Source: a virus. Taken from it: a stretch of DNA of 64,000 bases. Of this stretch, positions 4,786 through 23,562 are shown piece after piece; position 1 is the first letter of the stretch, and every line of letters begins with the position of its first letter. The position numbers were made by a program, and so were the translations under genes. The notes beneath the pieces are model-generated. The model made no database searches, was not told the origin of the DNA, and saw nothing but the letters and a program-made list of their open reading frames with translations. Location of the stretch: the IMG/VR virus record IMGVR_UViG_3300013131_004463, positions 1-64,000 of that record. One strand, written 5' to 3'.

Positions 4786-5751
4786 TTGAACATTCTTTGG
4801 CCAGATATCCATAAAAATCTCACAAAAAATATAGCAAAAGCATTTTCTTTGCTTGGTCACAATCTCATATTACCAAGCAATGAATATATTCCATCTAATC
4901 TTCCACCAAAACAATTTAATCAATGGGTTTGGAACACTAATTGGACACAAGAAAAAGCAAATTTAGAATTTAATTCAAACAATGTCAAAGTTCTTAACAA
5001 AGAACAAATACTAGATCTTAAGCCAGAAATAGTATTTATAACAAGTTTTGAAAGTCAGTTTGAAATATTAAATGAAATTTGGCCTCACCTTAAAGATAAA
5101 AGTAAACTAGCTTGCTATAGTGGCAATGATTATTGGGACGGAGCATATCCTTTTTATATTATTAAAAATTATCTTTGTGCAGATTATGTAGGCTATATGC
5201 TAGCTAATAAATATAAAGTAAACCATCTTTATTATAAACCTTGGGTAGATTATGATAGATGTACTTTTAATGGACCAACTGATGGAAATATAGTTGGAGT
5301 TTATATTTCAGAATATGAAAAGAATTTTAATCAAGAATATAACATGAGCCGCGAACTTCAAAAAATAACACCATATATAGATTATCACTATCATACGAAT
5401 AGCACTCAAGAAGAACTTACAGAAACCCTTAAATCTAGTATTGCTACCCAGCACATTAAACACCTCGAAGGTTATGGCATAGCAATAATCGAAAGCATGG
5501 CCTGTGGCAAGCCAGTATTTATGCATCGTAGGATGGCTCAAAATAAAAGCCTTATGCAGTGGAGCATAGAAAATGTTACTGCATTATTTTTTGAAAGTGA
5601 ATATGAATATATAGCTAAACTAAAAGCATTATACGAAAGCAAAGATTATAGATATTTCCTTCAAAATACAACTGCAAATGTTATAAGACAAATTATTGAT
5701 AATAAAAGAGAAACTGAAAAGCTTGGACATTTTCTTAATAATTTAGTATAA
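4786..5751 (+). CDS. Glycosyltransferase, GT4-like (GT-B fold)
   Basis: A 321-residue protein read from a TTG start. The C-terminal third has the group 1 glycosyltransferase signature: HLEGYGIAIIESMACGKPV at about residues 226-244, with the E-x7-E-like pair and the GKPV loop that contact the nucleotide sugar. The N-terminal half opens MNILWPDIHKN and has EIVFITSFE and YSGNDYW. It is short for a GT4 enzyme (usually 350-400). No upstream ATG gives the same frame, and the -10 box six bases upstream supports TTG. It is the first gene of the glycan cassette; donor and acceptor are unknown. Confidence 0.7.
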   Translation: MNILWPDIHKNLTKNIAKAFSLLGHNLILPSNEYIPSNLPPKQFNQWVWNTNWTQEKANLEFNSNNVKVLNKEQILDLKPEIVFITSFESQFEILNEIWPHLKDKSKLACYSGNDYWDGAYPFYIIKNYLCADYVGYMLANKYKVNHLYYKPWVDYDRCTFNGPTDGNIVGVYISEYEKNFNQEYNMSRELQKITPYIDYHYHTNSTQEELTETLKSSIATQHIKHLEGYGIAIIESMACGKPVFMHRRMAQNKSLMQWSIENVTALFFESEYEYIAKLKALYESKDYRYFLQNTTANVIRQIIDNKRETEKLGHFLNNLV

Positions 5752-5752
5752 T
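5724..5752 (+). promoter_or_regulatory. Promoter inside the cassette, before the GT2 gene
   Basis: TGGACA at 5724-5729, 17-base spacer, perfect TATAAT at 5747-5752, then eight bases to the GTG start at 5761. The -10 box overlaps the stop codon of the preceding gene. The spacing again puts transcription start at or next to the start codon. Confidence 0.5.
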
Positions 5753-5760
5753 TTTCAATA

Positions 5761-6597
5761 GTGAAAATCTGGCTCTGTGGCATTACCCAAAACGAGAAGC
5801 AGAATATTGATGATATGACAAAAGATATATATCAATATTTTGATGGTTTAATTTTTGTAGATGGCGGCTCAACTGATGGAACATTGGGTATATTAAATGC
5901 AAGAAAAGGTCAAGGAAAGATAATAAATAGAGAATGGTCAAATGATCATGACCTTCAAATGAATGGTTTTTTAAGATCAAATGTTATGCAAAATGGAGAT
6001 TGGTTTATTATAAGAGATAGCTGTGAAAGATTAAATATAGATTGGGCAAAAAATCTTAGATTATTTATAGAGGGATTTTTAACTCAAAATAATATTAATT
6101 CATGCGTTGATAGAGAAAAAGCTTTTCTAATTAAATATAATGATAATATGATATTTCAAGGTAGTCCTCATTGGGGGCTACAAGGCATGCAACCAAATTA
6201 TATAGATCTATATAAATACTATCAAGGCAATCAACAATTATTTGCGTGGGAGGAAAGACCAGCCCAAAGAAAACATTATATTGATAGTGATATGAAATAT
6301 TATTTTGTATATGGCAGATCGAATCACTGTGTCCTACATTATTATGATAATGGGAAAACTCCAGAAAGATATCATCAACAAGAAAATATAAGACAACAAT
6401 TTAGAGCTTATTGTCAATCATTAAATATTAAACTAGATTTAGATTCGCTAAAAACTTATTGGAAAGAGAATCAGCCAGATAATAATATGAAGTTATTTAT
6501 TAATAACGAAAGATTAATAAGAAGATTTTATAGATTAAATATCTTAAATCATTCATTAGAACAAATCGATTCATCAGAAGACTGGAGATTAGAATGA
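5761..6597 (+). CDS. Glycosyltransferase family 2-like (GT-A)
   Basis: A 278-residue protein with an N-terminal GT-A nucleotide-sugar-binding strand (MKIWLCGITQNEK) and the GT2 hallmark FVDGGSTDGT at about residues 31-40. A later IIRDSCERLN segment may hold metal-binding acidic residues in place of a classical DXD. It probably transfers one sugar in phage glycan assembly; specificity is not predictable. It starts with GTG and its stop overlaps the next ATG by four bases (ATGA), which suggests translational coupling. Confidence 0.75.
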   Translation: MKIWLCGITQNEKQNIDDMTKDIYQYFDGLIFVDGGSTDGTLGILNARKGQGKIINREWSNDHDLQMNGFLRSNVMQNGDWFIIRDSCERLNIDWAKNLRLFIEGFLTQNNINSCVDREKAFLIKYNDNMIFQGSPHWGLQGMQPNYIDLYKYYQGNQQLFAWEERPAQRKHYIDSDMKYYFVYGRSNHCVLHYYDNGKTPERYHQQENIRQQFRAYCQSLNIKLDLDSLKTYWKENQPDNNMKLFINNERLIRRFYRLNILNHSLEQIDSSEDWRLE

Positions 6598-7493
6598 AGC
6601 TAATAGATTGTTTTATGTACTTTAATGAGAAAGATATTGCTTATCTTAGAATAAAAGAATTATATGATTCTGTAGATTATTTTGTAATAAATGAAGCCAC
6701 AAAAACTCATCAAGGACAAGACAAAGAATTATCATTTTGGAAAGATACTAGGCTACAAGAATTTAAAGATAAAATTATTTATTCACCAATAGAACTAGAT
6801 GGAAGATTTGATGCCTTGATGCCTAAATTTTTTCCAGATGCAAAAATTGGCGCAAAAGAACATGAGCAAAGAATAAGGCTTTTTGAACAAATCGAACCAC
6901 TCAATTTAGATGATTTGGATACGATTATGATTTCAGATTGTGATGAAATACCTAATAAAAATATTTTTCAAGACATGATTAAATATCCAATAGTAGCATT
7001 AAATCAAATGTTTTTTGTACATTATATTGATATTTATACAAATAAAAATGTAACTGGAACAGTAGCTTGTAAATATGAAGGACTAAAACATTTAAATACT
7101 CTAGGCTTTGGAATGGGTTTTCAACTTTTAAGAAGAGATAAAGATTTTATGCCAAGGCTGGAAAATGGAGGATGGCATTACTCTTATATGGGCGGAGCAA
7201 AATCGGTAAGCCAAAAAGTAGTCTCGACTTATGATGGTAATTTAAATTCTCAATGGAAAACAGAAGAAGCAGCTCAAAAATTAATTAATGAGAGCATTCA
7301 AAATAGACAAAGCCCATTCTCTCAAGAGCCAATTAATATTTTAGATTTTAAATACGCAACTATTGCTGATTTAAATTTCATAACAGCAAAACAAGGTGGA
7401 TGGCATAAATCATCAGCGAGATGTCAATTACATCCTAAAGTACTAGAATTAGATTTTAATGGAGATTTTGAAATCTTAAGGTATAAAAAATGA
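6594..7493 (+). CDS. Glycosyltransferase family 17-like
   Basis: A 299-residue protein matching the GT17 layout (N-acetylglucosaminyltransferase-like): LIDCFMYFNEKD at the N-terminus, LYDSVDYFVINEATKTHQG near residues 23-41, DKIIYSPIEL, and the acidic motif MISDCDEIPN at about residue 110. The C-terminal GGWHYSYMGG and GGWHKSSARC segments are also typical. GT17 enzymes are found in many bacterial polysaccharide clusters and in large phages. It is linked by ATGA overlaps to both neighbours. Confidence 0.8.
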   Translation: MKLIDCFMYFNEKDIAYLRIKELYDSVDYFVINEATKTHQGQDKELSFWKDTRLQEFKDKIIYSPIELDGRFDALMPKFFPDAKIGAKEHEQRIRLFEQIEPLNLDDLDTIMISDCDEIPNKNIFQDMIKYPIVALNQMFFVHYIDIYTNKNVTGTVACKYEGLKHLNTLGFGMGFQLLRRDKDFMPRLENGGWHYSYMGGAKSVSQKVVSTYDGNLNSQWKTEEAAQKLINESIQNRQSPFSQEPINILDFKYATIADLNFITAKQGGWHKSSARCQLHPKVLELDFNGDFEILRYKK

Positions 7494-8368
7494 CAGATAT
7501 AGATTTTATATTAGCCTACGAACAAAATCCATTAATTTATGATTATATCTATAAAAATGGTACTTTTTACAAAAATAGCACAAATCAAAGACAATATCAT
7601 TTCCCAGAAATAGATTTATTAAAAAATAAATTGGATATAGCAGACCAGAACATAAGTAATAATTCTATTATATATTTTTGCATGAATGAATTTGAAAATT
7701 TATTAAATATTTTAAACAACCATTCTAATAAAAAATATGTTTTACTTGCGGATGGAGGAGATGGGAATGTTGAAAATTTAAAATTATCAGATAATATTTT
7801 ACATGTATATTGCCCAAATTTACCATTTTATAATAATAAGTATAGCCCATTTCCAAGAGGAATTTTAAAAGATAATTATTTAAGAGGCACAAAAGATACA
7901 AAGAACTTAGAAAGATCAAAAAATATATATTGTAATTTTACAGTATATTCTTATTCTAATCACAGAATAAATGATTTTAATTATTGGTATAATTTATCAA
8001 AATCAAATGATTATATAACTATAAAAAAAATAAATCACTCAGACGATCAATCTTACTGGAAAGATTTATATGAACACAAATTTAATATATGCTCATCGCC
8101 AGCTTCAGTCGCAGACAAAAATCAGAATAGAGATACGTATAGACTTTGGGAGACTTTAGTCGCTGGCTGTATTCCAGTAATTAAAAGGAGTAAAATGGCA
8201 GAATTTTTCTATAGTTTAAATTTACCAATATTAATAGTTGATCAATGGGAGGAAGCATCTTTAGATTATTTGAATAAAATTTTACAAGAATTTTCCAATA
8301 AATCTTTAGAAGCCACAAAAGAACAATATTGGATAGATAAATTAAGAGGACACTTTAAACATGAATAA
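7490..8368 (+). CDS. Exostosin-like glycosyltransferase
   Basis: A 292-residue protein. The C-terminal part has the exostosin-family pattern KFNICSSPASVADKNQNRDT then YRLWETLVAGCIPVI at about residues 222-236, equivalent to the conserved donor-binding RLWEAL-GCIPIV block. The N-terminal half (LLADGGDGNVENL, YCPNLPFYNNKYSPFPRG) matches no motif I can name but is consistent with a GT-B domain. Exact sugar unknown. The gene starts inside the last codon of the previous one and overlaps the next by eight bases. Confidence 0.7.
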   Translation: MTDIDFILAYEQNPLIYDYIYKNGTFYKNSTNQRQYHFPEIDLLKNKLDIADQNISNNSIIYFCMNEFENLLNILNNHSNKKYVLLADGGDGNVENLKLSDNILHVYCPNLPFYNNKYSPFPRGILKDNYLRGTKDTKNLERSKNIYCNFTVYSYSNHRINDFNYWYNLSKSNDYITIKKINHSDDQSYWKDLYEHKFNICSSPASVADKNQNRDTYRLWETLVAGCIPVIKRSKMAEFFYSLNLPILIVDQWEEASLDYLNKILQEFSNKSLEATKEQYWIDKLRGHFKHE

Positions 8369-9065
8369 CCCATTTGATTTTTTTGAAGAAATTTATTGTA
8401 TTAATTTAAATTATCGCACAGATAAGTGGAAAGCCTGTTTAGAGCAATTCGAAAAAATAGGCATACACAATAGAGTAGAAAGATTCGAAGCAATAAAATT
8501 TGAAGGATCACATCCATATGTAAATATTCGTTCGGCTGGATGTTTTGCATCTCACAGAGCAGCAATTAACCTAATTAAAGAGCGTAATTTAAATAATGCT
8601 TTAATTTTTGAAGATGATGTAGAATTTGTAAATGATGTAAATAAACATTTATCTTTATCATTAAATGAATTAAAAAAACAAAATTCATGGGATATATTCT
8701 ACTTAGGCATGCATGTTGGAGAAAAAATGGATAATAATAGACCAAATCAAATTGCATTAGAAAGAGTTGATAAAAATTTATTAAAAGTTAACGTAGCTCT
8801 ATGCGCTCACGCTCAAGCGTATAGCAGAGAGGCATCAGAAATCATTAGCGCAAATATTCCAGAGGGCCAAGCCATCATACCTTGGCTTCAAACAAATGAA
8901 AGCGTAGATGGATGGCTAATGAGACATATTTTACCAAGAGGAAAATCATTTTCAACAAATGAAATATTAGCTACTCAGTCTGAATCTTTTTCAGATAATA
9001 ATTTAGTAATGACAAGATTAGATAAATATTTTGTAGAAGCTTTCTATAAATATAGACCAGCATGA
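8361..9065 (+). CDS. Glycosyltransferase family 25 (LPS biosynthesis type)
   Basis: A 234-residue protein with the GT25 signature: EIYCINLNYRTDKW at residues about 9-22, then GCFASHRAAINLIKERN, and the metal-binding ALIFEDDVEFV near residue 85. The C-terminal region with the conserved GWLMRH is present. In bacteria GT25 enzymes add galactose or glucose to lipooligosaccharide. Two further GT25 genes lie at 62019 and 62816 on the other strand, but they resemble each other much more than this one. Confidence 0.85.
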   Translation: MNNPFDFFEEIYCINLNYRTDKWKACLEQFEKIGIHNRVERFEAIKFEGSHPYVNIRSAGCFASHRAAINLIKERNLNNALIFEDDVEFVNDVNKHLSLSLNELKKQNSWDIFYLGMHVGEKMDNNRPNQIALERVDKNLLKVNVALCAHAQAYSREASEIISANIPEGQAIIPWLQTNESVDGWLMRHILPRGKSFSTNEILATQSESFSDNNLVMTRLDKYFVEAFYKYRPA

Positions 9066-9874
9066 TTACTTTTTCTAAACTTGGTCATTTGGGCGCAATT
9101 GGGAATCAACTTTTTCAATATTCTGCATTATATTCTATTGGCAAATTAAATGATTATAATATTAAGATACCAGATACAAAAGAACATTTTTGCGAAGGCA
9201 CAAAAAGAATCCAGCATTATTTTTTGAATTGTTTTAAGAATATTTACGCAGAAGTTTTAAATGAGAATGATTTAAATTCTGTAAAACATAAGGTTGATTG
9301 GGGATATCCCGCGCTTTTTAATCCAGAAGTATTAAGAATACCAGACAATACAGATCTAGAAGGTTATTTTCAATCATACAAGTTCTTTGAAAATTGTAAA
9401 AATGATTTATTAGATCAATTTAAATTTAAAGATTCAATAATAGATAAAGTCCATAAAAAATATAATTTTAATTTTAATGATTTTTCTTCTGTTCATTTAA
9501 GGTGCGGAGACTATATTGGTAGGGATAATCACCATCCAATAATGAATAAAAATTACTATCAAAAAGCATTTCAAATAATAAATGCTTCTAACTATTTAGT
9601 CTTTTCAGATACAATTGATTATGCAAAACAAATTTTTAGTGAATTTAAAGATATTAATTTTATATACATAGAAAATAATCATGCATTTGAAGACATGTAT
9701 CTTATGTCTAGTTGTCAAAATAATATCTTAGCTAATAGTAGTTTTGCTTGGTGGTCTGCATATATAAATAAAAATAATAATAAAGTTGTTGCACCCTCAA
9801 ATTGGTTTGGACCAGCTTATAATGGCCAATGGAAAATTGATGATCTTATGCCTAATAATTGGATTGTAATATGA
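9062..9874 (+). CDS. Alpha-1,2-fucosyltransferase-like (GT11)
   Basis: A 270-residue protein with the three GT11 motifs: the N-terminal GAIGNQLFQYSALYSIG, the GDP-binding SVHLRCGDYIG near residues 142-152 (HxRxGD-like), and ILANSSFAWWSAYIN near residue 225. GT11 enzymes use GDP-fucose or a related GDP-6-deoxyhexose. This fits the GDP-mannose 4,6-dehydratase encoded in the same cassette, although no clear GDP-fucose synthase follows it. It is coupled to the next gene by an ATGA overlap. Confidence 0.85.
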   Translation: MITFSKLGHLGAIGNQLFQYSALYSIGKLNDYNIKIPDTKEHFCEGTKRIQHYFLNCFKNIYAEVLNENDLNSVKHKVDWGYPALFNPEVLRIPDNTDLEGYFQSYKFFENCKNDLLDQFKFKDSIIDKVHKKYNFNFNDFSSVHLRCGDYIGRDNHHPIMNKNYYQKAFQIINASNYLVFSDTIDYAKQIFSEFKDINFIYIENNHAFEDMYLMSSCQNNILANSSFAWWSAYINKNNNKVVAPSNWFGPAYNGQWKIDDLMPNNWIVI

Positions 9875-10740
9875 GTAGAGTAACTTGGAATATTTTAGAT
9901 GGTCATTTTGCGCATGAGAAATATTCAGTAGCCGGAAGAGATGCTGAATATGTAAATTGGGATAGAGAATTAAAAGATTTAAATAATCCAACATTCTATT
10001 CTCATATGGAAATGTTTAAAATAGATCAATTAAATACTCCTAAAGAAAATTCATATGGATTAATTTTTGAATCAAGAGGTATTGATTTGCAAACATATAA
10101 TTCTGCAGAACAATTGATTCCTAAATTTAACAAAGTATTTACTCATAATTCTGAATATTTAAAAAAGTACGAAAATTGTAAATGGATTCCAGGAGGAGGA
10201 ATTTGGGTAGGCGGAAGAAAAGATACTCCTCATGCAGAAGGCGAAATAAAAATGCAAGATAAAAATAAATTATGCTCCATGGTTTCATCTAATAAGCAAA
10301 TGTGCAGAGGTCATTTAACTAGATTACAAATAATGAATCTCGTAAAAGATAATACTAAAATAGATAAGTTTTTTGGAGTAGGCGGACCAAATGATAATTC
10401 TGGATGGATACCAATTTTTAGATCTTTAAAAGACTATATGTTTTCTATAGTTATTGAAAATTATATAGACGAGTTATATATAACAGAAAGAATATTAAAT
10501 TGTTTCGCTACTGGTACAATTCCAATATATTTAGGGGCATCAAATATAGGTCAAATTTTTAATATAGATGGAATTATTCATCTAAATTCATTAAATAGCA
10601 TGGAACAATTTAACTATTTAATTGAAAATTTAACCTCAGAGTATTATTATAATAGAATGGATGCAATTAAAGATAATTTTGAAAGATGTTTAAGATATAA
10701 ATCAATAGAAGATTATATATATATAAATTACCTAAAATGA
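9871..10740 (+). CDS. Alpha-1,3-fucosyltransferase-like (GT10)
   Basis: A 289-residue protein from the ATG at 9871, which overlaps the previous stop as ATGA. The C-terminal donor-binding block is clear: MFSIVIENYIDELYITERIL, then CFATGTIPIYLGASNI, the GT10 signature for GDP-fucose use. The N-terminal acceptor region is short and unlike the mammalian enzymes, as in bacterial homologues such as that of Helicobacter. Adjacent GT11 and GT10 genes suggest a difucosylated or similarly branched structure. A longer reading from a TTG at 9859 is possible but less likely. Confidence 0.8.
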   Translation: MSRVTWNILDGHFAHEKYSVAGRDAEYVNWDRELKDLNNPTFYSHMEMFKIDQLNTPKENSYGLIFESRGIDLQTYNSAEQLIPKFNKVFTHNSEYLKKYENCKWIPGGGIWVGGRKDTPHAEGEIKMQDKNKLCSMVSSNKQMCRGHLTRLQIMNLVKDNTKIDKFFGVGGPNDNSGWIPIFRSLKDYMFSIVIENYIDELYITERILNCFATGTIPIYLGASNIGQIFNIDGIIHLNSLNSMEQFNYLIENLTSEYYYNRMDAIKDNFERCLRYKSIEDYIYINYLK

Positions 10741-11504
10741 ATCAAACAAGTATTAGTGATACTCAGAGATATAAAAATGCATGTAAAATGGCAACTATAA
10801 GTGATTTTCATTTTGATTTTTTTAAAAAAGATCAAGCCTATACAGAGATATTAGAGCACGTAAATCAAGAACAAGGTCAAATGTATAAAGATTATCTAGA
10901 CATACATTTTGCCGATTACAAAACTAAATTAGATAAGTTTAAAGAAAATGATATTTATGGTGGCCCAGCGATTTTTAATTATGGTGATTTAGGATTAATA
11001 TCACCAACAACATTAAGATATATTAAAGTATTATCAGATCTAAAAAATTTATATGGATCATTAGATAATTTTAATATTATAGAAATTGGCGTTGGGTATG
11101 GTGGTCAATGCAAGATCATAAGCGATTTTTTTAATATCAGTAAATATTATTTAGTTGATTTAGATGAGGCAACAGATTTAGCACTAAAATACCTTAATAA
11201 ACTTAATGTTAAAAATGTAGAACCAATTAGATTTGATGAAATACAGAATAAAGATTTGAAATTTGACTTAATTATAAGCAATTATGCTTTTACAGAATTA
11301 AACAGAGATATTCAAGATATATATCTAAGTAATATACTTACAAAATCTACGAGAGGCTATATGACCTGCAATTTTATTAGTCAATACTGTAATATTAATT
11401 CTTATTCTCTTCAAGAGTTAGAATTGCAGCTGAAACAATTTAATTTTAAAAAATTTCAAGAATTTCCATTAACTCATAAAGATAATCTAATTCTTTGCTG
11501 GTAA
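10737..11504 (+). CDS. Putative sugar O-methyltransferase
   Basis: A 255-residue protein resembling the family annotated as putative sugar O-methyltransferase in polysaccharide loci. The N-terminal half has GGPAIFNYGDLGLISPTTLR, which precedes the SAM loop NIIEIGVGYGGQCKIISDFF at about residues 114-133, then YYLVDLDEATDLA and LIISNYAFTELNRD. Methylation of a terminal sugar often ends or caps a glycan. It sits between the fucosyltransferase-like and GT2-like genes and starts at an ATGA overlap. Confidence 0.75.
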   Translation: MNQTSISDTQRYKNACKMATISDFHFDFFKKDQAYTEILEHVNQEQGQMYKDYLDIHFADYKTKLDKFKENDIYGGPAIFNYGDLGLISPTTLRYIKVLSDLKNLYGSLDNFNIIEIGVGYGGQCKIISDFFNISKYYLVDLDEATDLALKYLNKLNVKNVEPIRFDEIQNKDLKFDLIISNYAFTELNRDIQDIYLSNILTKSTRGYMTCNFISQYCNINSYSLQELELQLKQFNFKKFQEFPLTHKDNLILCW

Positions 11505-11509
11505 AAAAT

Positions 11510-12211
11510 ATGGACTTTACTTTTGGCATTATAACGACCAAGCAAAATCCAGAATTGGAATTAGAAACAATTATCTCATCTATTAAAAACTTATTAATAC
11601 CAAATTATGAGATATTAATAATAGGCGGAAGCGCAAGTAAGCAAATAGAAAATATAAAAATCTTTTCATTTGATGAAAACCCAAATGGAGCATGGATTAC
11701 AAAAAAGAAAAATTTAATAACACAAAATGCTAAATATGATAATATTGTTTATATGCATGATTATATTATTTTTGATAAAGATTGGTATATAAATTTTTTA
11801 AATTTTGGTAATAATTTTAAAGTATGTATGAATCAAATAATAAATTTAGACGGCACAAGATTTAGAGATTGGACGCTCTGGGCAGAATCCGCAGAACAAG
11901 TAGGTATACCTAATCCATATTATTTAATACCTTATAGCATAAAAAATCTTTCTAAATTAATGTATTTCTCTGGAGCATATTGGGTTGCAAAAAAGAATGT
12001 TATGGAAGAGTTTCCATTAAATGAAAATCTATTTTGGGGCCAAGGAGAAGATGTAGAATGGTCTAAAAGAATTAGAGAAAAATATAATTTCTCTATTAAT
12101 CAAAATTCAATAGTTAGACTTTTAAAGTATAAAAATCCAGCCTTTTTAAGCTGCAATAACTTAGAAAAAATTAAAGAGATAAACGAAATAAAACAATATA
12201 ATAATATATGA
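11510..12211 (+). CDS. Glycosyltransferase family 2-like
   Basis: A 233-residue protein from the ATG at 11510 (238 from a TTG at 11495, which lies inside the previous gene). It has a GT-A Rossmann start (DFTFGIITTKQNPELE, YEILIIGGSA), KKKNLITQNAKYDNIVYMHD with an acidic site, and the C-terminal LFWGQGEDVEWSKRIREKY motif typical of GT2 enzymes with a galactosyltransferase-type (GT7-like) C-terminal segment. The catalytic base is probably in the GED. Stop and next start overlap as ATGA. Confidence 0.7.
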   Translation: MDFTFGIITTKQNPELELETIISSIKNLLIPNYEILIIGGSASKQIENIKIFSFDENPNGAWITKKKNLITQNAKYDNIVYMHDYIIFDKDWYINFLNFGNNFKVCMNQIINLDGTRFRDWTLWAESAEQVGIPNPYYLIPYSIKNLSKLMYFSGAYWVAKKNVMEEFPLNENLFWGQGEDVEWSKRIREKYNFSINQNSIVRLLKYKNPAFLSCNNLEKIKEINEIKQYNNI

Positions 12212-15803: not shown

Positions 15804-15810
15804 ATATTTT

Positions 15811-15842
15811 TATTATATATTATATATTATATATTATATATT
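15811..15842 (+). repeat. Tandem TTATATA heptamer repeat
   Basis: About four perfect copies of a seven-base unit in the short gap before the GDPD-like gene. On the minus strand the unit reads TATAATA, the same as the array at 62765. It may act as a promoter-like or DNA-bending spacer, or arise by slippage. Confidence 0.7.
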
Positions 15843-15854
15843 GATACAATTAAT

Positions 15855-16283: not shown

Positions 16284-17257
16284 TGAAAATTATTGTAACT
16301 GGCGGACTTGGTTTTATCGGTTCTAATTTTATTAAATATATAATTAATAAAAAAGAAACAAATATTGTTATAAACATAGACACAACAACAAAACAATATT
16401 CGGCATCGAATAAAGATAACGTAAAAGCTTTTGAAGACAATCCAAAGTATAAATTTTATGATTTCTGGTTAGAAATGCTAGATAATCCTTCCGTTAAAAA
16501 TGAATTTAAACAAATAATAAAAGAAAACAATATAACTCACATAGCGCATTTTGCCGCCGAATCTCATGTTGATAATTCAATATCTAATCCAAGACGATTT
16601 ATTCAGTCAAATATATTCGGTACATTTAATCTATTAGAAATTATTAGAGATTTTCCAGAAATTAGATTTCATCATATTTCTACTGATGAAGTTTATGGCA
16701 GTTTAGGTGAAGAAGGTAAATTTACAGAAACAACAGCGTATGCTCCAAATTCCCCATATTCTGCATCAAAAGCGGCTAGTGATATGTTAGTCAGAGCTTA
16801 TAATCATACTTTTAAAAGTTTAATTACAATTTCTAATTGCTCTAACAATTATGGTCCAAATCAACATAATGAAAAATTTATACCAGTTGTTATAAATTCA
16901 ATACTAAATAATAAAAAAATACCTGTTTATGGCAACGGAAAAAACATAAGAGATTGGATTTTTGTTAATGATCATTGTGAAGCAGTATGGTCTGTATTAA
17001 ATAATGGCAAAATTGGTGAAACATATAATATAGGCGGAAATTGTGAAAAAACAAATTTAGAGATTATCAATGATATTTGCGAAATATTAAATGTTAATTC
17101 TCAAGATTATATATCTTTTGTAGAAGATCGTAAAGGTCATGATTTTAGATATGCTATAGACAACACTAAAATAAATAAAGAATTAAATTGGTATCCAATC
17201 ACATCTTTTAAAGACGGATTAAAACAAACAATTGATTTTTATAAAAATTTGTTATAA
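16283..17257 (+). CDS. dTDP-glucose 4,6-dehydratase-like (RmlB family)
   Basis: A 324-residue short-chain dehydrogenase from the ATG at 16283; a longer reading from 16241 adds 14 residues overlapping the previous gene and is rejected. NAD loop GGLGFIGSNF at residues 7-16, HFAAESHVDNSISNP, the catalytic HISTDEVYG (Thr-Asp-Glu) and YSASKAASDM (Tyr-x3-Lys) are intact, as is NCSNNYGPNQHNEKFIP. It should convert an NDP-glucose to the 4-keto-6-deoxy sugar. Whether the nucleotide is dTDP, CDP or UDP cannot be told, although the sequence looks most like RmlB. Confidence 0.85.
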   Translation: MKIIVTGGLGFIGSNFIKYIINKKETNIVINIDTTTKQYSASNKDNVKAFEDNPKYKFYDFWLEMLDNPSVKNEFKQIIKENNITHIAHFAAESHVDNSISNPRRFIQSNIFGTFNLLEIIRDFPEIRFHHISTDEVYGSLGEEGKFTETTAYAPNSPYSASKAASDMLVRAYNHTFKSLITISNCSNNYGPNQHNEKFIPVVINSILNNKKIPVYGNGKNIRDWIFVNDHCEAVWSVLNNGKIGETYNIGGNCEKTNLEIINDICEILNVNSQDYISFVEDRKGHDFRYAIDNTKINKELNWYPITSFKDGLKQTIDFYKNLL

Positions 17258-17260
17258 TAT
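17232..17260 (+). promoter_or_regulatory. Promoter before the Gmd gene
   Basis: TTGATT at 17232-17237, 17-base spacer, TAATAT at 17255-17260 (or an overlapping perfect TATAAT at 17253-17258 with a 15-base spacer), then six bases to the ATG at 17267. It lies within the last codons of the RmlB-like gene. Confidence 0.45.
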
Positions 17261-17266
17261 AACAAT

Positions 17267-18406
17267 ATGAGTTTGAACTTTCAAGAAACCTATTATGGTA
17301 AAAAGATAGATACTTCCAATATTTTAAATATTGAAGACGCTAGTAGAATAATTAATGGAAAAAAAACAGTAGTAATAACTGGCGTAACTGGTCAAGATGG
17401 AAGTCATATGGTTGATTTTTTACTTAAAAATACAGATTATCTTATTTTTGGTGGAGTAAGAAGGTTGAGCGTATATAATCATGAAAATATTAAACACATT
17501 AAATCTGATAGATTTCATCTTATTAATTTTGATCTAACTGATTCTCATGCTATATCTAGGACTGTAGAAAAACTTCAACCAGATTATTTTATTAACTTTG
17601 CTGCTCAAAGTTTTGTTGCAAGTAGTTGGGATTTTGCTAGACAAACTTGGCAAACTAACTCCACAGCAGTTCTTGATATTTTAGAAGCAATTAGGCTCTA
17701 TAAACCATCTTGCAGACTTTACCAAGCTGGATCAAGTGAGGAATTTGGAAATGTACAATATGCTCCTCAAGATGAAAATCATCCATTAAAACCAAGAAGT
17801 CCATATGGGGCAAGCAAAGCAGCTTCTAGACAATTAGTTAAAGTATACAGAGAATCTTACAATACTTATGCTATTCAAGGATGGCTATTCAATCACGAAG
17901 GAACTAGGCGAGGTGAGGAATTCGTTACAAGAAAAATTACAAAAAATGTAGCAAGGATTTATAATTCAATAAAAGAAAATAAAGAATTTAAACCTCTCGA
18001 ACTAGGAAATATAGACGCAAAAAGAGATTGGAGTGATGCAGAAGATTTTGTAGAGGGCGTCTGGATGATGTTAAATCAAGATAAATATAATCCAAATTAC
18101 GATGGAACACCAAAAGAATATATTTTCTCATCTAATGAAACTCACACAATCAGAGAGTTTGCAGAAAAAGCTTTTGCTTATGCTGGAATTAATGGAGAAT
18201 GGATTGGTGAAAAAGAACACGAAGTATACTTATCTAAAGATAAGAAAGTATTAATTCAAATTAATCCTAAATTTTATAGACCAGCAGAAGTAGAGGTTTT
18301 ACTTGGAGACTCTAATAAAGCTAGAAAAGAATTAAATTGGAAACCTAAATCATCATTAAATGATCTTATTGAAAAGATGGTAAAAAATGATATTAAAAAT
18401 TTATGA
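17267..18406 (+). CDS. gmd: GDP-mannose 4,6-dehydratase
   Basis: A 379-residue protein with the NADP loop VITGVTGQDGSHMVDFLL at about residues 37-54 and the Gmd arginine motif GGVRRLSVYNHENI. NFAAQSFVASSWDF, the catalytic AGSSEEFG (Ser-Ser-Glu region) and RSPYGASKAASRQLVKVYRE follow, then LFNHEGTRRGEEFVTRKIT. These match Gmd closely. The product is GDP-4-keto-6-deoxy-D-mannose, precursor of GDP-fucose, GDP-rhamnose, GDP-perosamine or GDP-colitose. A 35-residue N-terminal extension precedes the domain. It has its own promoter-like boxes and overlaps the next gene by four bases. Confidence 0.9.
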   Translation: MSLNFQETYYGKKIDTSNILNIEDASRIINGKKTVVITGVTGQDGSHMVDFLLKNTDYLIFGGVRRLSVYNHENIKHIKSDRFHLINFDLTDSHAISRTVEKLQPDYFINFAAQSFVASSWDFARQTWQTNSTAVLDILEAIRLYKPSCRLYQAGSSEEFGNVQYAPQDENHPLKPRSPYGASKAASRQLVKVYRESYNTYAIQGWLFNHEGTRRGEEFVTRKITKNVARIYNSIKENKEFKPLELGNIDAKRDWSDAEDFVEGVWMMLNQDKYNPNYDGTPKEYIFSSNETHTIREFAEKAFAYAGINGEWIGEKEHEVYLSKDKKVLIQINPKFYRPAEVEVLLGDSNKARKELNWKPKSSLNDLIEKMVKNDIKNL

Positions 18407-19257
18407 TACTATTAATTGGATCTAGTGGCTACATTGGCACCGAATTCGTTAAACAATTAGATAAAAAAAATATAAAATATTATACTTTATCATATAAAGA
18501 AGCAAATTATAAAAATATAAAATCCCTATATGATCTTTATAATATAAAATACTTGATAAATTCAGCAGCTTTTGTTGGCAAACCAAATATTGAAGCGTGT
18601 GAGTCTCAAAAAGATAAATGCATAGAAGGTAATATTTTACTTCCCATTTTATTGAAAAATATATGTGAGCAATTTAATATAATTTATTGCCATATCTCAA
18701 CTGGATGCCTTTATAATGGTGCCACGTCTGAATTAAATGGATACAAAGAAATAGACGAACCTAATTTTAATTTTAAATATAATAACTGTGGTTTTTACAC
18801 AGGGACAAAAGCCTTAACAGAAGACTTGATTAAATCATATCCTCAAAATTATATCTGGAGAATAAGATTACCATTCGAACAATTTCATAACGATAGAAAT
18901 TATATATCAAAAATTATAAAGTATGATACTTTGATTACAGAAAAAAATTCACTAAGTAATAAAAGTGAATTTGTAAATGCATGCATAGAAAGTATATTGA
19001 AAGAAATACCATTTGGAATATATAATATAACCAATACAGGATCTATATCTGCATCTGATATTTTTGAAAAAATTAAAAAAACAATAATGCCAAACAAAAA
19101 AGCTAACTTTTTGACAATGGATGAATTTTATAATAAAATAAGTTCTATGCCTAGATCAAATTGTATCACAGATAATTCAAAAATAAGATCTACAGGTATT
19201 AAAATGTTAGATGTAAACGAATCCATAGATCTTTGTCTGAAACATTGGACTTGGTAA
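18403..19257 (+). CDS. NAD(P)-dependent sugar reductase, RmlD-like
   Basis: A 284-residue SDR protein: MILLIGSSGYIGTEFVKQL as the dinucleotide loop, YLINSAAFVGKPNIEACE, and CHISTGCLYNGATSE with the catalytic Ser/Thr. The Tyr-x3-Lys appears as FYTGTKALTEDL. The pattern fits dTDP-4-dehydrorhamnose reductase-like enzymes that reduce the C4 keto group of 6-deoxy sugars. It could reduce the product of either the RmlB-like or the Gmd enzyme. ATGA overlap with Gmd supports a joint pathway. Confidence 0.7.
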   Translation: MILLIGSSGYIGTEFVKQLDKKNIKYYTLSYKEANYKNIKSLYDLYNIKYLINSAAFVGKPNIEACESQKDKCIEGNILLPILLKNICEQFNIIYCHISTGCLYNGATSELNGYKEIDEPNFNFKYNNCGFYTGTKALTEDLIKSYPQNYIWRIRLPFEQFHNDRNYISKIIKYDTLITEKNSLSNKSEFVNACIESILKEIPFGIYNITNTGSISASDIFEKIKKTIMPNKKANFLTMDEFYNKISSMPRSNCITDNSKIRSTGIKMLDVNESIDLCLKHWTW

Positions 19258-19258
19258 T

Positions 19259-20386
19259 ATGAATACTATTATTGATCTAGGAGAGATACCTTTAGTTAAT
19301 AATCTATGCCTCTCTAAAGAAGAATCTTTAAATTGTAAAAAGTTTCCATTAAAAATAATTCAAAAAGAAGATCTAATTATGAAATTAGAGCTAGAAATTA
19401 ATTCTAATGATATGTTCTTTAATTATCTTTATAGAACAGCAGTAAACACTCCTTACATAGACCATTGTAAAAAAATGTGGAAACAATTAGAAAAATATAA
19501 TCCTAAAACCATAGTTGATATTGGCGGTAATGATGGATCTTTATTAAAATGCTTCAAATCAGAATCAAAAACTAATTTAAAATTAATAAATGTTGATGCT
19601 AGTTCATCTTTTAAAGAAGAAAATGAAAAAAATGGAATTATATATCATAATGCTTATTGGGGAGATTTTATACTTGATGAAAAAATAGATTTAATTACAT
19701 CTACGAATGTATTTCAGCATAATCCAGACTATCGTAAATTTTTAAAAGGTATAAAAGATAATTTAAATGGTATTTGGGTTTTAGAGTTTCCATATTTTTT
19801 ACATACAGTTAAAACTAATCAATTTGATCAAATTTATCACGAACATGTCTATTATTGGCTAGTAACACCTTTGATTAAATTGTTCAGAGAATATGATTTA
19901 AAAATACAATCAATCACGCAATATGATATGCATGGAGGATCTCTTAGAATCATATCTTCAAATAGAACAGAAGATCAAGAGAACAAAGAAATTATTAATT
20001 ATTATTTAAACATAGAAAGAGATTTTAATTTTAAAAATTGGGGCAAACAAATAAAAAATAGAATAATTCAAGATTTAAATTTTATAAACTCATTAAATGG
20101 TGAAATTGCTGTATTTGGTGCAGCTGCAAAAGGTTGTGTTTATTTAAACACATTAAATATCTCAAATAAAATATCATATATTGTAGATGATACAAAAGAA
20201 AAGCAAAACAAATTTTGTCCAGGAACTGGATTGAGAATTGTTGATAGGGAATATTTTTACAAAAATAATCCAGATTATTTGATTATTTTAGCTCATAATT
20301 TTAAGGATTATATTACTAAGTCAATTAGAAATGATGGATTTAAAAATAGAATCATAACTATGATACCCAATATACAAATATATTGA
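19259..20386 (+). CDS. Sugar C-methyltransferase lacking the N-terminal zinc domain
   Basis: A 375-residue protein of the NovU/TylC3-type C-methyltransferase family. The SAM domain has TIVDIGGNDGSLLKCFKS, followed by YHEHVYYW and the catalytic-region DMHGGSLRIISS. The C-terminal domain has VFGAAAKGCVYLNTL and YIVDDTKEKQNKFCPGTG. Family members are usually about 410 residues with four N-terminal zinc-binding Cys. Here the start falls in DLGEIPLVNNLCLS, just after where these Cys would be, so the zinc motif is missing. It probably methylates a carbon next to a keto group of an NDP-deoxy sugar, giving a branched-chain sugar. Confidence 0.8.
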   Translation: MNTIIDLGEIPLVNNLCLSKEESLNCKKFPLKIIQKEDLIMKLELEINSNDMFFNYLYRTAVNTPYIDHCKKMWKQLEKYNPKTIVDIGGNDGSLLKCFKSESKTNLKLINVDASSSFKEENEKNGIIYHNAYWGDFILDEKIDLITSTNVFQHNPDYRKFLKGIKDNLNGIWVLEFPYFLHTVKTNQFDQIYHEHVYYWLVTPLIKLFREYDLKIQSITQYDMHGGSLRIISSNRTEDQENKEIINYYLNIERDFNFKNWGKQIKNRIIQDLNFINSLNGEIAVFGAAAKGCVYLNTLNISNKISYIVDDTKEKQNKFCPGTGLRIVDREYFYKNNPDYLIILAHNFKDYITKSIRNDGFKNRIITMIPNIQIY

Positions 20387-20411
20387 CATTTATATATAAA
20401 AATATTAAAAT
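20383..20411 (+). promoter_or_regulatory. Promoter before the RfbH-like gene
   Basis: Perfect -35 TTGACA at 20383-20388, 17-base spacer, TAAAAT at 20406-20411, six bases, then ATG at 20418. The -35 overlaps the stop codon region of the C-methyltransferase gene. Confidence 0.6.
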
Positions 20412-20417
20412 TATACA

Positions 20418-21722
20418 ATGACAAAAAAAGACAAGATCTTAAATTTCATAAATTCTTTAGAACAAGAGGAAAACACTTTTATTCCTCAGTTTTGCCATAA
20501 TTTAAAAGATACAAAAAATAAAGTATACTATGGCGGACCATCATATACAAAAGAAGAACTTGTAGAAGCTATAGATACCCTTCTATTTGGCAAATGGTTA
20601 GCTAGTGGTGAAAATGTAGCCAGATTTGAAAAAGAATTTTCAAAGAGAATTAATGAAAAGTACTCTGTCATGGTTAATTCTGGTAGCTCTGCTAACCTAG
20701 TAATGATTGCAGCACTTAAGAAGTATTTTAATTGGAAAGATAATGATGAGATTTTAGTTTCAGTAGTAGGTTTTCCAACTACATTAAATCCTATTATTCA
20801 AAATAATCTAAAACCAGTATTTGTAGATATTGAGTTCGAAACGCTAAACTTTGATCTAGATCAACTAGAACAAAAGATCGGTAAAAATACGAAAGCTATA
20901 TTTATATCGCCAGTATTAGGAAATCCACCAGATTTTGATAAACTTATTGAAATTTCTGAAAAACATAATATTCAACTAATTTTAGATGGATGTGATAGCT
21001 TTGGAAGCAAATGGAAAGATAAACATTTAAATGAATATTGCATAGCTTCTAGTTGCTCATTCTACCCAGCGCATCATTTAACTACTGGAGAGGGAGGCAT
21101 GGTCTCTTCTAATATCGAAGAAATCATTAACTTAGCAAGAAGTTTTGCGTGGTGGGGAAGAGATTGTTATTGCATTGGTGCTTGTAATCTTTTGAAGAAT
21201 GGAAGTTGTAATTCTAGATTTTCCAACTGGATTAAAGAAGTACCATATAATATTGATCATAAATATTTCTTTACTCAAATTGGATACAATTTAAAACCGT
21301 TGGATTTACAAGGTTCAATTGGATTAGTTCAATTAAAAAAAATGCATGAATTTCATAGCGCAAGAGTATCAAATAAAAATAAAATTCAAAATATTTTATC
21401 TAAAATTCCTAATTTGAAATTTCCGTCTGTTTTTGAAAGTGCAGACGTTTCTTGGTTTGGAGTGCCAATTATTTGTGGTTGTTATCTATCTAAAAATAAT
21501 CTAGTAAATTATTTAGAAGAAAATGGAGTTCAAACTAGAAATTACTTTGCTGGAAATATACTTTTACATCCAGCCTATAAACATTTAGAAGATTGGAAAA
21601 ATTATCCTAACGCTAATACTGTTCTTGAAAAAGTATTTTTTGTCGGATGTTCTCCAACTATTAGTGAAAGTAACATAGAGTATCTAGAAGGTGTTATTCA
21701 TAGATATGATATCAAAAATTGA
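20418..21722 (+). CDS. RfbH/E1-like 4-keto-6-deoxyhexose 3-dehydrase
   Basis: A 434-residue PMP/PLP-dependent protein of the DegT/DnrJ/EryC1/StrS fold. VNSGSSANLVMIAAL binds the cofactor phosphate and LILDGCDSFGSKW supplies the pyridine-contacting Asp. The Lys that would form the Schiff base is replaced by His in SFYPAHHLTTGEGG (about residue 220), the hallmark of sugar 3-dehydrases rather than aminotransferases. The Cys cluster GRDCYCIGACNLLKNGSC matches the 2Fe-2S site of E1/RfbH, not the Fe-S-free ColD. It should remove the C3 hydroxyl to give a 3,6-dideoxy 4-keto sugar. An E3-type reductase partner is not seen in the window. Confidence 0.85.
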   Translation: MTKKDKILNFINSLEQEENTFIPQFCHNLKDTKNKVYYGGPSYTKEELVEAIDTLLFGKWLASGENVARFEKEFSKRINEKYSVMVNSGSSANLVMIAALKKYFNWKDNDEILVSVVGFPTTLNPIIQNNLKPVFVDIEFETLNFDLDQLEQKIGKNTKAIFISPVLGNPPDFDKLIEISEKHNIQLILDGCDSFGSKWKDKHLNEYCIASSCSFYPAHHLTTGEGGMVSSNIEEIINLARSFAWWGRDCYCIGACNLLKNGSCNSRFSNWIKEVPYNIDHKYFFTQIGYNLKPLDLQGSIGLVQLKKMHEFHSARVSNKNKIQNILSKIPNLKFPSVFESADVSWFGVPIICGCYLSKNNLVNYLEENGVQTRNYFAGNILLHPAYKHLEDWKNYPNANTVLEKVFFVGCSPTISESNIEYLEGVIHRYDIKN

Positions 21723-22527
21723 TCTTTTTGGCGGAACAGGTTTTGTAGGTAGTAATTTTTACAATTTATATAAATCAGAAACCTATATTCATCCAAGAGA
21801 AGACAATGTTCCACTTTATCGGGATGTTTTATACATGATTAGTACAACTGATAATTATAATGTTCTTGAGAATCCATATAAAGATATAGAAGTTAATTTA
21901 ACTAAATTAATTAAAGTGTTAGAAAGCTGTAAGAATAAAAATATTATTTTTAACTTTGTAAGTTCTTGGTTTGTCTATGGCGATGTTGAATTACCAGCGA
22001 AAGAAAGTTATTGCTGTAATCCTAAAGGATTTTATTCTATTACAAAGAAATGCGCAGAAGATTTACTTGTAAGCTATTGTAAAACATTTAATATAAATTA
22101 TAGAATATTCCGACTAGCAAATGTATATGGAAATAAAGATATTGGAGTATCTAAAAAGAAAAATGCTTTAACATATTTAATTAATGAAATAAGAAATAAT
22201 CAAAATATTAATTTATATTTTAATGGAGAATTTATAAGAGATTATATTCACGTAGAAGACGTTTGTAAAGCCATAAAACTCTGTATAGATAAGGGTAATT
22301 TAAATGAAGTATATAATATTGGAAATGGAGAACCTTTAATATTTAAAGATATTATAGATTATGTAATTAATAAAATTTCTTCAAAATCATTAGTAACTGC
22401 TATAGACCAACCAGAATTTCATAAAATAGTTCAAGTAAAAGATATGTATTTAGATAATAATAAAATTAAACAATTAGGTTTTAAAAAAGAAATTGACATT
22501 TATCAAGGAATTGATAGACTTATATAA
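21706..22527 (+). CDS. NAD-dependent sugar epimerase/dehydratase family protein
   Basis: A 273-residue SDR enzyme from the ATG at 21706; a GTG at 21691 gives five more residues but lies deeper in the previous gene. DLFGGTGFVGSNFYNLY is the cofactor loop, NFVSSWFVYG the Ser region, GFYSITKKCAEDL the Tyr-x3-Lys, and YNIGNGEPLIFKDIID the C-terminal sugar-binding region. It is probably the 4-ketoreductase or epimerase acting after the RfbH-like step, as abequose, paratose or tyvelose enzymes do in Salmonella and Yersinia. The actual product is not predictable. Confidence 0.7.
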   Translation: MISKIDLFGGTGFVGSNFYNLYKSETYIHPREDNVPLYRDVLYMISTTDNYNVLENPYKDIEVNLTKLIKVLESCKNKNIIFNFVSSWFVYGDVELPAKESYCCNPKGFYSITKKCAEDLLVSYCKTFNINYRIFRLANVYGNKDIGVSKKKNALTYLINEIRNNQNINLYFNGEFIRDYIHVEDVCKAIKLCIDKGNLNEVYNIGNGEPLIFKDIIDYVINKISSKSLVTAIDQPEFHKIVQVKDMYLDNNKIKQLGFKKEIDIYQGIDRLI

Positions 22528-22853
22528 TGTCAAAACACAAGCTTTGCCAATTACTAGTAAAAAAATTTGTAAAAGGAGATGTTAATTGGCCAAGAGAAAT
22601 TAAAATAGCTCAAAAACTAGTTAAAAGATTTAAAGAATTTGAATTTTGGAATAATCTTAAAGAACTAGGAAGTCCACCGCCATCATTAGCTTGGTTTCTT
22701 AAAACTGAAGGGAAAGCTTTTTTATTAAAAGAATATGAGAGTTTTAATATAAAATTAAATATACCTAAAATAAAATTAAAAGAAAATAAAGTAGAAGATG
22801 ATAAAAAGATTTGCAAAAAACCAAAAACATTGTTAGACTTTATAAGAAGATAA
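22527..22853 (+). CDS. Hypothetical basic protein (108 aa)
   Basis: A small Lys-rich protein (MSKHKLCQLLVKKFVKGDVN, PPPSLAWFLKTEGKAFL) with a charged C-terminal tail ending LLDFIRR. No catalytic motif is apparent. Its start overlaps the preceding stop (TAATG), and it is one base from the next gene, so it is translated with the end of the glycan cassette. It could be a nucleic-acid-binding or adaptor protein, but nothing in the sequence decides this. Confidence 0.55.
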   Translation: MSKHKLCQLLVKKFVKGDVNWPREIKIAQKLVKRFKEFEFWNNLKELGSPPPSLAWFLKTEGKAFLLKEYESFNIKLNIPKIKLKENKVEDDKKICKKPKTLLDFIRR

Positions 22854-22854
22854 A

Positions 22855-23562
22855 ATGAAAAATACAGCTCTTACATCAGCAATAAACTATAATGATTATT
22901 TGAAAATTTTTAAACAACATAATTATGATTATTTTGATGAAATATATGTTGTAACAGATTTAAATAAAGATGAAGAGTTAGAGCAAATATGTAGCCAATC
23001 TAAATTTAAATTAATAAAAACAGATAAATTTTATAGTTTTCAAAATCAACCAGCTAAATTTAACAGGGGCGCAGCGTATACATACGCTATGAGTTTATTT
23101 GAAAATCCCGAAATAATTACTATAATAGACGCGGATACATTACTTCCAGAAATCTATCATCTTATATTTAAAGAATTAAAATCAAGAGGTAAATTTGATC
23201 AAATGATAAGCGCCAGAAGATTTGTTCTAGAAACTTATCAGGATTATTCAAAAGTTTTTATTGAAAAAGATGTTAATTATACTCCAGAAATGAGAAGTTT
23301 TGATTGGGGTTGGGGATATCTTCAAATTTTTCATGCAGGAAGTAAATGGTTAAAAAATGGACTAATATATCCAGAAAATTATGACTGCGCTGTTTCAGAT
23401 TTTATGTTTAGAAAACAATTCGGATGGCACATTTTTAGGCAAGATACAGAAGAGCATTATTGGGACCCAGAAGCACAAATTTGTTTAAGACAGCATTCAG
23501 TTTATGGACTTGGTCCGAATAATATAAATTCTAGAGGTAGAAACGCGCCAGCATTTAAATAA
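22855..23562 (+). CDS. Glycosyltransferase-like protein (GT-A)
   Basis: A 235-residue protein ending the glycan cassette. TIIDADTLLPEIYHL at about residue 90 gives the DAD metal-binding motif of GT-A enzymes. It is preceded by NRGAAYTYAMSLF and followed by SFDWGWGYLQIFH and HIFRQDTEEHYWDPEAQICL, which resembles the acceptor side with its conserved His. The N-terminus is short (MKNTALTSAINYNDYL). It likely transfers a sugar; family not assigned. Confidence 0.6.
   Translation: MKNTALTSAINYNDYLKIFKQHNYDYFDEIYVVTDLNKDEELEQICSQSKFKLIKTDKFYSFQNQPAKFNRGAAYTYAMSLFENPEIITIIDADTLLPEIYHLIFKELKSRGKFDQMISARRFVLETYQDYSKVFIEKDVNYTPEMRSFDWGWGYLQIFHAGSKWLKNGLIYPENYDCAVSDFMFRKQFGWHIFRQDTEEHYWDPEAQICLRQHSVYGLGPNNINSRGRNAPAFK

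What the first reader, a model, noticed from the sequence alone, without database searches (positions are those of the whole stretch)
4786..23562. About 19 kb phage cassette for making and attaching deoxy-sugars
About eleven glycosyltransferase-like genes (including GT2, GT4, GT10, GT11, GT17, GT25 and exostosin types), methyltransferases and at least six sugar-nucleotide enzymes lie in one near-continuous plus-strand series with overlapping starts. This is a host-scale polysaccharide locus inside a phage, without flippase, polymerase or initiating transferase. That absence points to glycosylation of phage proteins or modification of an existing host glycan rather than a complete polymer.
Basis: partly seen in the sequence, partly recalled or inferred. 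Interest (0 to 1): 0.75.

Follow-up and report, generated by a model that had tools for sequence, protein, structure and literature searches.

The report
Swappable sugar-chain locus in phages
A large uncultured family of phages carries at one fixed place in the genome a block of sugar-making and sugar-attaching genes that is almost completely different from phage to phage, much like bacterial capsule or O-antigen loci, and that probably decorates a phage protein with strain-specific sugar chains.

Summary
In detail: 22 plus-strand ORFs at 4786-23562 with 14 overlapping junctions, eight supported glycosyltransferases, three methyltransferases and six nucleotide-sugar enzymes, in a siphovirus-like phage contig. 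Related loci add what one sequence cannot show. The cassette is a hypervariable locus at a fixed site (cassette - GMD - unkC - UvsX - replication genes) in a large uncultured lineage: across 42 loci, upstream neighbours share 21% of genes and downstream ones 86%, even when UvsX is 95-98% identical. A GDP-mannose 4,6-dehydratase (GMD) is the constant element, in 50 of 51 loci picked without reference to it. Initiating transferases and Wzx-type flippases are absent from 33 records. No cassette protein is membrane-spanning. In 24 of 28 GT4a-type loci the gene directly upstream encodes a highly divergent protein with an S/T/P/N/G/Q-rich C-terminal tail and no signal peptide: a candidate acceptor. 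Best reading: cytosolic glycosylation of a phage (virion) protein, analogous to chloroviruses. Modification of host glycans remains open. Host is probably Verrucomicrobiota. Hypervariable glycosyltransferase islands are known in pelagimyophages, so this is a new variant of a known kind.

The parts
1419..1806 (+). tmRNA gene, conserved in the lineage; left landmark of the locus
   Evidence: ARAGORN; Rfam RF00023 102 bits; the same kind of tmRNA in all six long related genomes
2467..3861 (+). 464-aa protein, weak fibronectin-III match, no relative in six long genomes; variable virion-like protein
3868..4596 (+). 242-aa protein with S/T/P-rich C-terminal tail: candidate glycan acceptor (inferred)
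   Evidence: C-terminal 60 residues 52% S/T/P, 72% STPNQG; no signal peptide or TM; equivalent position in 24 of 28 GT4a loci
4752..4779 (+). promoter-like TTGATT-16-TATAAT just upstream of the GT4a start codon
   Evidence: consensus match only
4786..5751 (+). GT4 (GT4a), left anchor of the cassette, TTG start
   Evidence: PF00534 8e-7; 27 IMG/VR relatives, most 86-94% identical
5761..6597 (+). GT2-like glycosyltransferase
   Evidence: PF00535 0.004 (below cut-off)
6594..7493 (+). GT17 glycosyltransferase
   Evidence: PF04724 3e-15
7490..8368 (+). GT47/RXYLT1-like glycosyltransferase
   Evidence: PF24785 1e-3, PF03016 1e-3 (below cut-off)
8361..9065 (+). GT25 glycosyltransferase
   Evidence: PF01755 3e-10
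9062..9874 (+). GT11, fucosyltransferase family; HLRCGDY motif
   Evidence: PF01531 3e-20; sequence
9859..10740 (+). GT10, fucosyltransferase family
   Evidence: PF00852 4e-13; sequence
10737..11504 (+). methyltransferase
   Evidence: PF08242 3e-6
11495..12211 (+). GT2-like by eye; no Pfam support
   Evidence: sequence
12208..13808 (+). two ORFs of unknown family (12208-13164, 13164-13808), found in few relatives
13801..15177 (+). HAD phosphatase + sugar-1-phosphate nucleotidyltransferase fusion
   Evidence: PF13419 4e-28, PF00483 2e-11
15180..15803 (+). methyltransferase
   Evidence: PF13489 1e-5
15855..16283 (+). short ORF, phosphodiesterase-like by eye (ISHRGN motif), no Pfam support
16241..17257 (+). 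dTDP-glucose 4,6-dehydratase (RmlB)
   Evidence: TIGR01181 420 bits (cut-off 365)
17267..18406 (+). GDP-mannose 4,6-dehydratase (GMD): constant element of the locus
   Evidence: TIGR01472 333 bits (cut-off 415); closest solved relatives GMDs, 2z1m 2e-82; in 50 of 51 UvsX-anchored loci
18403..19257 (+). RmlD-like reductase
   Evidence: PF04321 1e-15
19259..20386 (+). sugar C-methyltransferase
   Evidence: PF08484 2e-23
20418..21722 (+). RfbH/E1-type 3-dehydratase (His for Lys; Fe-S cysteines kept)
   Evidence: aligned to 3bcx 7.5e-75; RfbH model 372 of 423 bits
21691..22527 (+). SDR epimerase/dehydratase
   Evidence: PF01370 2e-29
22527..22853 (+). unkC: 108-aa lineage-core ORF between GMD and UvsX
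   Evidence: in 54 of 62 loci; one of two core families upstream of UvsX
22855..23562 (+). GT2 glycosyltransferase, accessory (8 of 62 loci)
   Evidence: PF13704 3e-5
23602..24744 (+). UvsX-like recombinase: right boundary, start of conserved replication module
   Evidence: phrog_97 1e-31
34255..36177 (+). GT4b: lineage-core glycosyltransferase, C-terminal end resembling the start of a GT9 heptosyltransferase
   Evidence: PF00534 3e-7; TIGR02195 536-590; 65-98% identical in 80 loci, at least 598 places
36192..37343 (+). GT9-like ORF, core partner of GT4b
   Evidence: PF01075 8e-6; present in six long genomes
62019..62765 (-). GT25 glycosyltransferase inside the structural module
   Evidence: PF01755 4e-12

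Best explanation
The cassette is the variable part of a phage glycan locus that works like a serotype locus. Shown: it sits at a fixed site between an upstream variable protein gene and GMD-unkC-UvsX, its gene content turns over much faster than the flanking replication genes, GMD is its constant element, and it encodes soluble enzymes only. Inferred: the enzymes make nucleotide-activated 6-deoxy sugars (GDP-4-keto-6-deoxymannose from GMD; dTDP and 3-deoxy sugars in this cassette) and assemble a short, partly methylated oligosaccharide in the host cytosol, directly on a phage protein. The most likely acceptor is the divergent protein with the S/T/P-rich tail encoded just upstream, in the window 3868-4596 (possibly with 2467-3861), used in the virion. 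New variants arise by recombination between the conserved ends (GT4a side and GMD-UvsX side).
For: Gene content and families. Fixed order in more than 50 loci. 21% versus 86% shared genes on the two sides of UvsX, 227 versus 29 gene families in 42 loci, no dependence on UvsX identity up to 98%. Variable families with Pfam matches are mostly sugar enzymes, glycosyltransferases and methyltransferases. GMD in 50 of 51 loci chosen by UvsX. No PF02397, PF13440 or PF00953 in 33 records with ringing controls. No TM segment in any cassette protein. Upstream protein: 24 of 28 GT4a loci, 36-189 bases from GT4a, same strand, C-terminal tail STPNQG 0.56 versus 0.32 for all proteins of seven genomes (p = 1e-13, relatedness not corrected), pairwise mostly unrelated or below 35% identity while GT4a is mostly 86-94% identical; no signal peptide or TM. 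Model of one group: long helix then disordered tail. Functional precedent: chloroviruses glycosylate their capsid protein in the cytoplasm with virus-encoded GMD and glycosyltransferases including exostosin-like, GT4 and GT17 types (PMC5408694).
Against: No direct evidence that any protein of these phages is glycosylated, nor that the upstream protein is in the virion: fold searches gave nothing usable. The tail association holds for GT4a-type cassettes; in G005, G010, G013 and G022 other genes precede the cassette. Upstream protein and cassette type are not strictly coupled. A promoter-like site between them suggests separate transcription. GT25, GT9 and RfbH are typical of LPS synthesis.
Confidence: 0.5

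Rival explanations
1. Host-surface remodelling. The enzymes add or replace sugars on the host's own LPS, O-antigen or capsule during infection to block other phages, and the cassette varies because the host's glycans vary from strain to strain.
For: Favoured by the authors for similar pelagimyophage islands (PMC7029224). LPS-type families GT25, GT9 and RfbH are present. Host-strain matching would also give hypervariability.
Against: No GtrB-like membrane transferase, flippase, initiating or membrane-spanning protein in the cassette. Full sugar-nucleotide pathways are an expensive way to modify an existing polymer. The divergent S/T/P-tailed protein next to the cassette is not explained.
Confidence: 0.3
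2. DNA hypermodification. The glycosyltransferases build glycans on modified bases to evade restriction.
For: Phage-encoded glycosyltransferases that put diverse glycans on DNA are known (Pyle et al. 2024, cited in PMC12619734). The cassette sits next to the replication module.
Against: The thymidylate-synthase gene is ThyX (PF02511); no ThyA/hydroxymethylase family member above cut-off in 33 records; no Tet/JBP match, though that search had no positive control. Gene content of a DNA-modifying set is not expected to turn over this fast.
Confidence: 0.05
3. A donor of sugar nucleotides and glycosyltransferases to the host's own Wzx/Wzy or ABC machinery, giving a new complete polymer on the infected cell.
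For: Locus organisation resembles O-antigen loci minus membrane parts, which the host could supply.
Against: Host initiating transferases and flippases are partly substrate-specific; a lytic phage has little time to build a new coat. No evidence specific to it.
Confidence: 0.08

Closest known systems
Host recognition cluster (HRC) of pelagimyophages and cyanomyophages (PMC7029224)
   Same: Hypervariable island rich in glycosyltransferase and deoxy-sugar genes at a fixed site in otherwise syntenic phage genomes.
   Different: T4-like myoviruses, island between VrlC and gp14 in the structural region with tail fibres, GT8-dominated; here a siphovirus-type lineage, island next to UvsX, constant GMD, near-pure glycan gene content with whole sugar-nucleotide pathways.
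Chlorovirus (PBCV-1) cytoplasmic glycosylation of the major capsid protein (PMC5408694)
   Same: Virus-encoded GMD and glycosyltransferases incl. GT4, GT17 and exostosin-like types; process in the cytoplasm; acceptor without signal peptide.
   Different: Eukaryotic algal virus; acceptor proven there, only a candidate here; not known to be swapped as one hypervariable cassette.
Glycosylated mycobacteriophage virions (Freeman et al. 2023, cited in PMC12619734)
   Same: Phage-encoded glycosyltransferases modifying virion proteins, at C-termini of capsid and tail tube subunits.
   Different: Few glycosyltransferases (from memory), different phages; paper not available here.
Bacterial O-antigen / capsule loci
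   Same: Variable middle between conserved flanks, codirectional overlapping genes, the same enzyme families.
   Different: No flippase, polymerase, chain-length or initiating transferase.
Seroconversion gtr clusters of temperate phages
   Same: Phage glycosyltransferases.
   Different: gtr clusters (from memory) carry a flippase and a bactoprenol glucosyltransferase with membrane segments; no membrane protein here.

Membership tests
Complete Wzx/Wzy or ABC polysaccharide locus | initiating sugar-phosphate transferase (PF02397 or PF00953) | tested here: not met
   0 of 33 records, controls ring in 9 and 12 of 14 genomes
Complete Wzx/Wzy or ABC polysaccharide locus | Wzx-type flippase / Wzy-type polymerase (many TM segments) | tested here: not met
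   PF13440 0 of 33; at most 5 predicted TM segments in any protein of seven long genomes; Wzy families not searched by profile; records incomplete
Seroconversion gtr cluster | membrane-spanning GtrA/GtrB | tested here: not met
   no TM segment in any cassette protein; GtrA family not searched by profile
DNA hypermodification by glycosyltransferases | hydroxymethyl-pyrimidine supply (ThyA-family hydroxymethylase or Tet/JBP) | tested here: inconclusive
   PF00303 none over cut-off in 33; PF12851 none, but no positive control rang
Virus-encoded virion protein glycosylation | glycan present on virion protein | not testable with these tools
   needs virions and mass spectrometry
Virus-encoded virion protein glycosylation | virus-encoded sugar-nucleotide enzymes and soluble glycosyltransferases | tested here: met
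Virus-encoded virion protein glycosylation | cytosolic acceptor without signal peptide encoded by the virus | tested here: inconclusive
   candidate found next to the cassette without signal peptide; acceptor role unproven
Hypervariable glycosyltransferase island of pelagimyophage type (HRC) | non-syntenic island with glycosyltransferases at a fixed site | tested here: met
Hypervariable glycosyltransferase island of pelagimyophage type (HRC) | T4-like phage, island between VrlC and gp14 with tail fibres | tested here: not met
   lambda-like tail-tip genes; island borders UvsX, not the neck genes

The most novel reading that the evidence does not exclude
A phage lineage that switches virion serotype as bacteria switch capsule: one exchangeable locus pairs a hypervariable, S/T/P-tailed virion protein with an exchangeable glycan pathway built around a constant GDP-mannose dehydratase, so that near-identical phages carry different complex glycans.
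Probability: 0.4. Interest if true: 0.85.

Novelty: new variant of a known kind. Interest (0 to 1): 0.62.

Why it matters
If right, phage particles in lakes and seas carry complex, strain-specific glycans made by the phage itself, and the diversity is maintained by a mechanism like that of bacterial antigen loci. Since there is no antibody pressure on such phages in water, what selects for the diversity (adsorption, protist grazing, competition between phages, host glycan matching) becomes a testable question. The locus is also a source of unusual deoxy- and branched-sugar enzymes, and GMD plus GT4b mark a large lineage without a cultured member in the collections searched.

Tried and rejected
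Single-sequence structure of GT4b: pLDDT 38, unusable. Profile search of GT4b against PDB: nothing. Structure of the upstream variable protein: body partly confident, but Foldseek gave no significant match; the best viral hit (BppU-like, E 3e-3, TM 0.08) is not taken as evidence. Promoter conservation upstream of GMD: 30 of 43 against 51% in shuffles, not convincing; the site before GT4a is only a lead. First genome-contig scan with DnaB: none. Complete polysaccharide locus: rejected. DNA modification: unlikely. Strict coupling of upstream protein and cassette type: not seen (L197 and L200 71% alike with different cassettes; L198 and L200 33% alike with near-identical cassettes). Direct nucleotide relatives of the cassette in cultured phages: none.
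Full report
WHAT IS THERE. The window is bases 1-64,000 of a 79,230-b IMG/VR virus record. It has lambda-like tail-tip genes, a 2,481-aa tape-measure-type protein, a capsid-like protein, UvsX, DnaB, ThyX, a PolC/DnaE-type polymerase and a tmRNA. Eight glycosyltransferases have Pfam support: GT4, GT2, GT17, GT47-like, GT25, GT11, GT10 and a second GT2; GT2 at 5761 and GT47 are weak. There are three methyltransferases (one a sugar C-methyltransferase), a HAD+nucleotidyltransferase fusion, RmlB, GMD, an RmlD-like reductase, an RfbH-like enzyme and an SDR epimerase. The RfbH-like enzyme carries the SFYPAHH motif and the cysteines of the E1 3-dehydratase, so it should remove the 3-hydroxyl rather than transaminate. 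GMD aligns over its length with solved GDP-mannose dehydratases. GT10 and GT11 are fucosyltransferase families, which fits GDP-6-deoxyhexose donors, but GDP-fucose synthase was not identified with confidence.

WHAT THE RELATIVES SHOW. A scan of IMG/VR with GMD gave 62 loci and one with UvsX gave 80. Gene maps show one fixed order: variable glycan genes, GMD, none to several variable genes, unkC, UvsX, replication genes; in long genomes PolC is followed by GT4b, a GT9-like ORF and g7. Among UvsX loci with at least 4 kb upstream, 50 of 51 hold a GMD; the exception, L073, has a different neighbourhood. In 42 loci with full flanks, a gene left of UvsX has a counterpart in another locus in 21% of comparisons, a gene on the right in 86%. 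The contrast is the same at 85-90% and at 95-98% UvsX identity (24% versus 86%). Left flanks hold 227 families, 148 of them singletons, and only GMD and unkC are core; right flanks hold 29, 8 core. Of 509 left genes 498 lie on the same strand. Of 120 variable families scanned with Pfam, the most frequent matches are SDR epimerases/dehydratases, methyltransferases (incl. FkbM), GT2, GT4, GT17, GT61, GT10, GT47, DegT and nucleotidyltransferases. In the long genomes homologues of these families fall mainly in one block upstream of UvsX. A 171,916-b relative (G005) with a 357-b direct terminal repeat is probably complete. GT4b occurs in at least 598 places in IMG/VR, so the lineage is large. No cultured phage in the collection comes near: DnaB at most about 25%, GT4b one hit at 22%, no nucleotide match of the cassette.

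ABSENCES. PF02397, PF00953 and PF13440 have no match in 33 records, with controls ringing. In seven long genomes no protein exceeds five predicted TM segments, and no cassette protein of the window has one. So the locus lacks the membrane parts of polymer loci and of gtr clusters. DNA modification lacks its base-hydroxylating enzyme as far as tested (the Tet/JBP search had no positive control).

A CANDIDATE ACCEPTOR. GT4a marks the left end of one cassette type. In 24 of 28 loci (27 from IMG/VR plus the window) the gene just upstream, same strand and 36-189 bases away, encodes a protein whose last 60 residues are rich in S, T, P, N, G and Q (mean 0.56 over all 27 loci with an upstream ORF; all proteins of seven genomes 0.32; p = 1e-13, not corrected for relatedness, and four pairs are identical). 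These proteins are mostly unrelated or below 35% identical to each other, while GT4a is mostly 86-94% identical. They have no signal peptide or TM segment. For the group that could be aligned, AlphaFold2 gives a body, a long helix and a disordered tail; fold searches were inconclusive. In the window this gene is 3868-4596, behind a 464-aa protein with a weak fibronectin-III match. That it is the acceptor, and that it is in the virion, is inference.

HOST. The closest GMD in 84,980 prokaryote species genomes is on a 4.4-kb contig of a Verrucomicrobiales MAG (60%; all others 48% or less). That contig itself carries phage genes distantly like the window's structural genes. Several relatives carry a pseudopilin gene and a beta-strand-repeat protein, which are common in Verrucomicrobiota and Planctomycetota (from memory). 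Host Verrucomicrobiota is likely but not proven.

MECHANISM AND KNOWN SYSTEMS. Best reading: soluble enzymes build activated 6-deoxy sugars and a short oligosaccharide on a phage protein in the cytosol, and phages exchange cassettes through the conserved ends. Chloroviruses do the equivalent, with GMD and GT4, GT17 and exostosin-like enzymes, on their capsid protein (PMC5408694). The closest phage precedent is the hypervariable host-recognition cluster of pelagimyophages, whose authors favour host O-chain modification (PMC7029224). That rival stays at 0.3 here, because host-strain matching would also produce hypervariability. The finding is therefore a new variant of a known kind: different phage type, different site, near-pure glycan content and a constant GMD.

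Noticed in passing
window 1419-1806; G001, G005, G010, G013, G017, G022: Phage tmRNA with an unusual 24-aa tag (AKTAKYKGHIS..SVA, shorter in G010) that is nearly identical in seven genomes of the lineage.
   Followed up: partly
window 34255-37343: Two adjacent core ORFs look like a GT4 fused to the N-terminal half of a GT9 heptosyltransferase, with the GT9 C-terminal half in the next ORF; the two-ORF arrangement recurs in relatives.
   Followed up: partly
L151:206-871 (-), L151:850-3342 (-); similar in G010, G013, G017: Phage genes for a prepilin/pseudopilin-like protein and a beta-strand-repeat (autotransporter-type) protein, conserved in several relatives.
   Followed up: partly
window 4752-4779 and 17232-17258: TTGATT-(15-16)-TATAAT sites ending 6-8 bases before the start codons of GT4a and GMD, which would give nearly leaderless mRNAs; consensus match only.
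   Followed up: partly
window 62019-62765: GT25 glycosyltransferase gene lying between structural genes on the minus strand.
   Followed up: no
L001:14196-15479 (-) and G010:97763-100621: BspA-type leucine-rich-repeat protein encoded by the phage (Pfam 4e-56).
   Followed up: no
G001 33506, 35371, 36699, 40642, 49926; G017 96777, 98216: Small families of Cys-rich paralogues with a shared N-terminus and diverging remainder, some beside the cassette's left end.
   Followed up: no
L168:9013-9942 (+), L168:5285-7543 (+): Relatives encode a shortened adenylosuccinate synthetase (PurA 6e-79, PurZ 5e-26) and class Ia ribonucleotide reductase.
   Followed up: no
L290: Contig of a Verrucomicrobiales MAG that carries the closest GMD outside the lineage plus distantly related phage structural genes.
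   Followed up: partly
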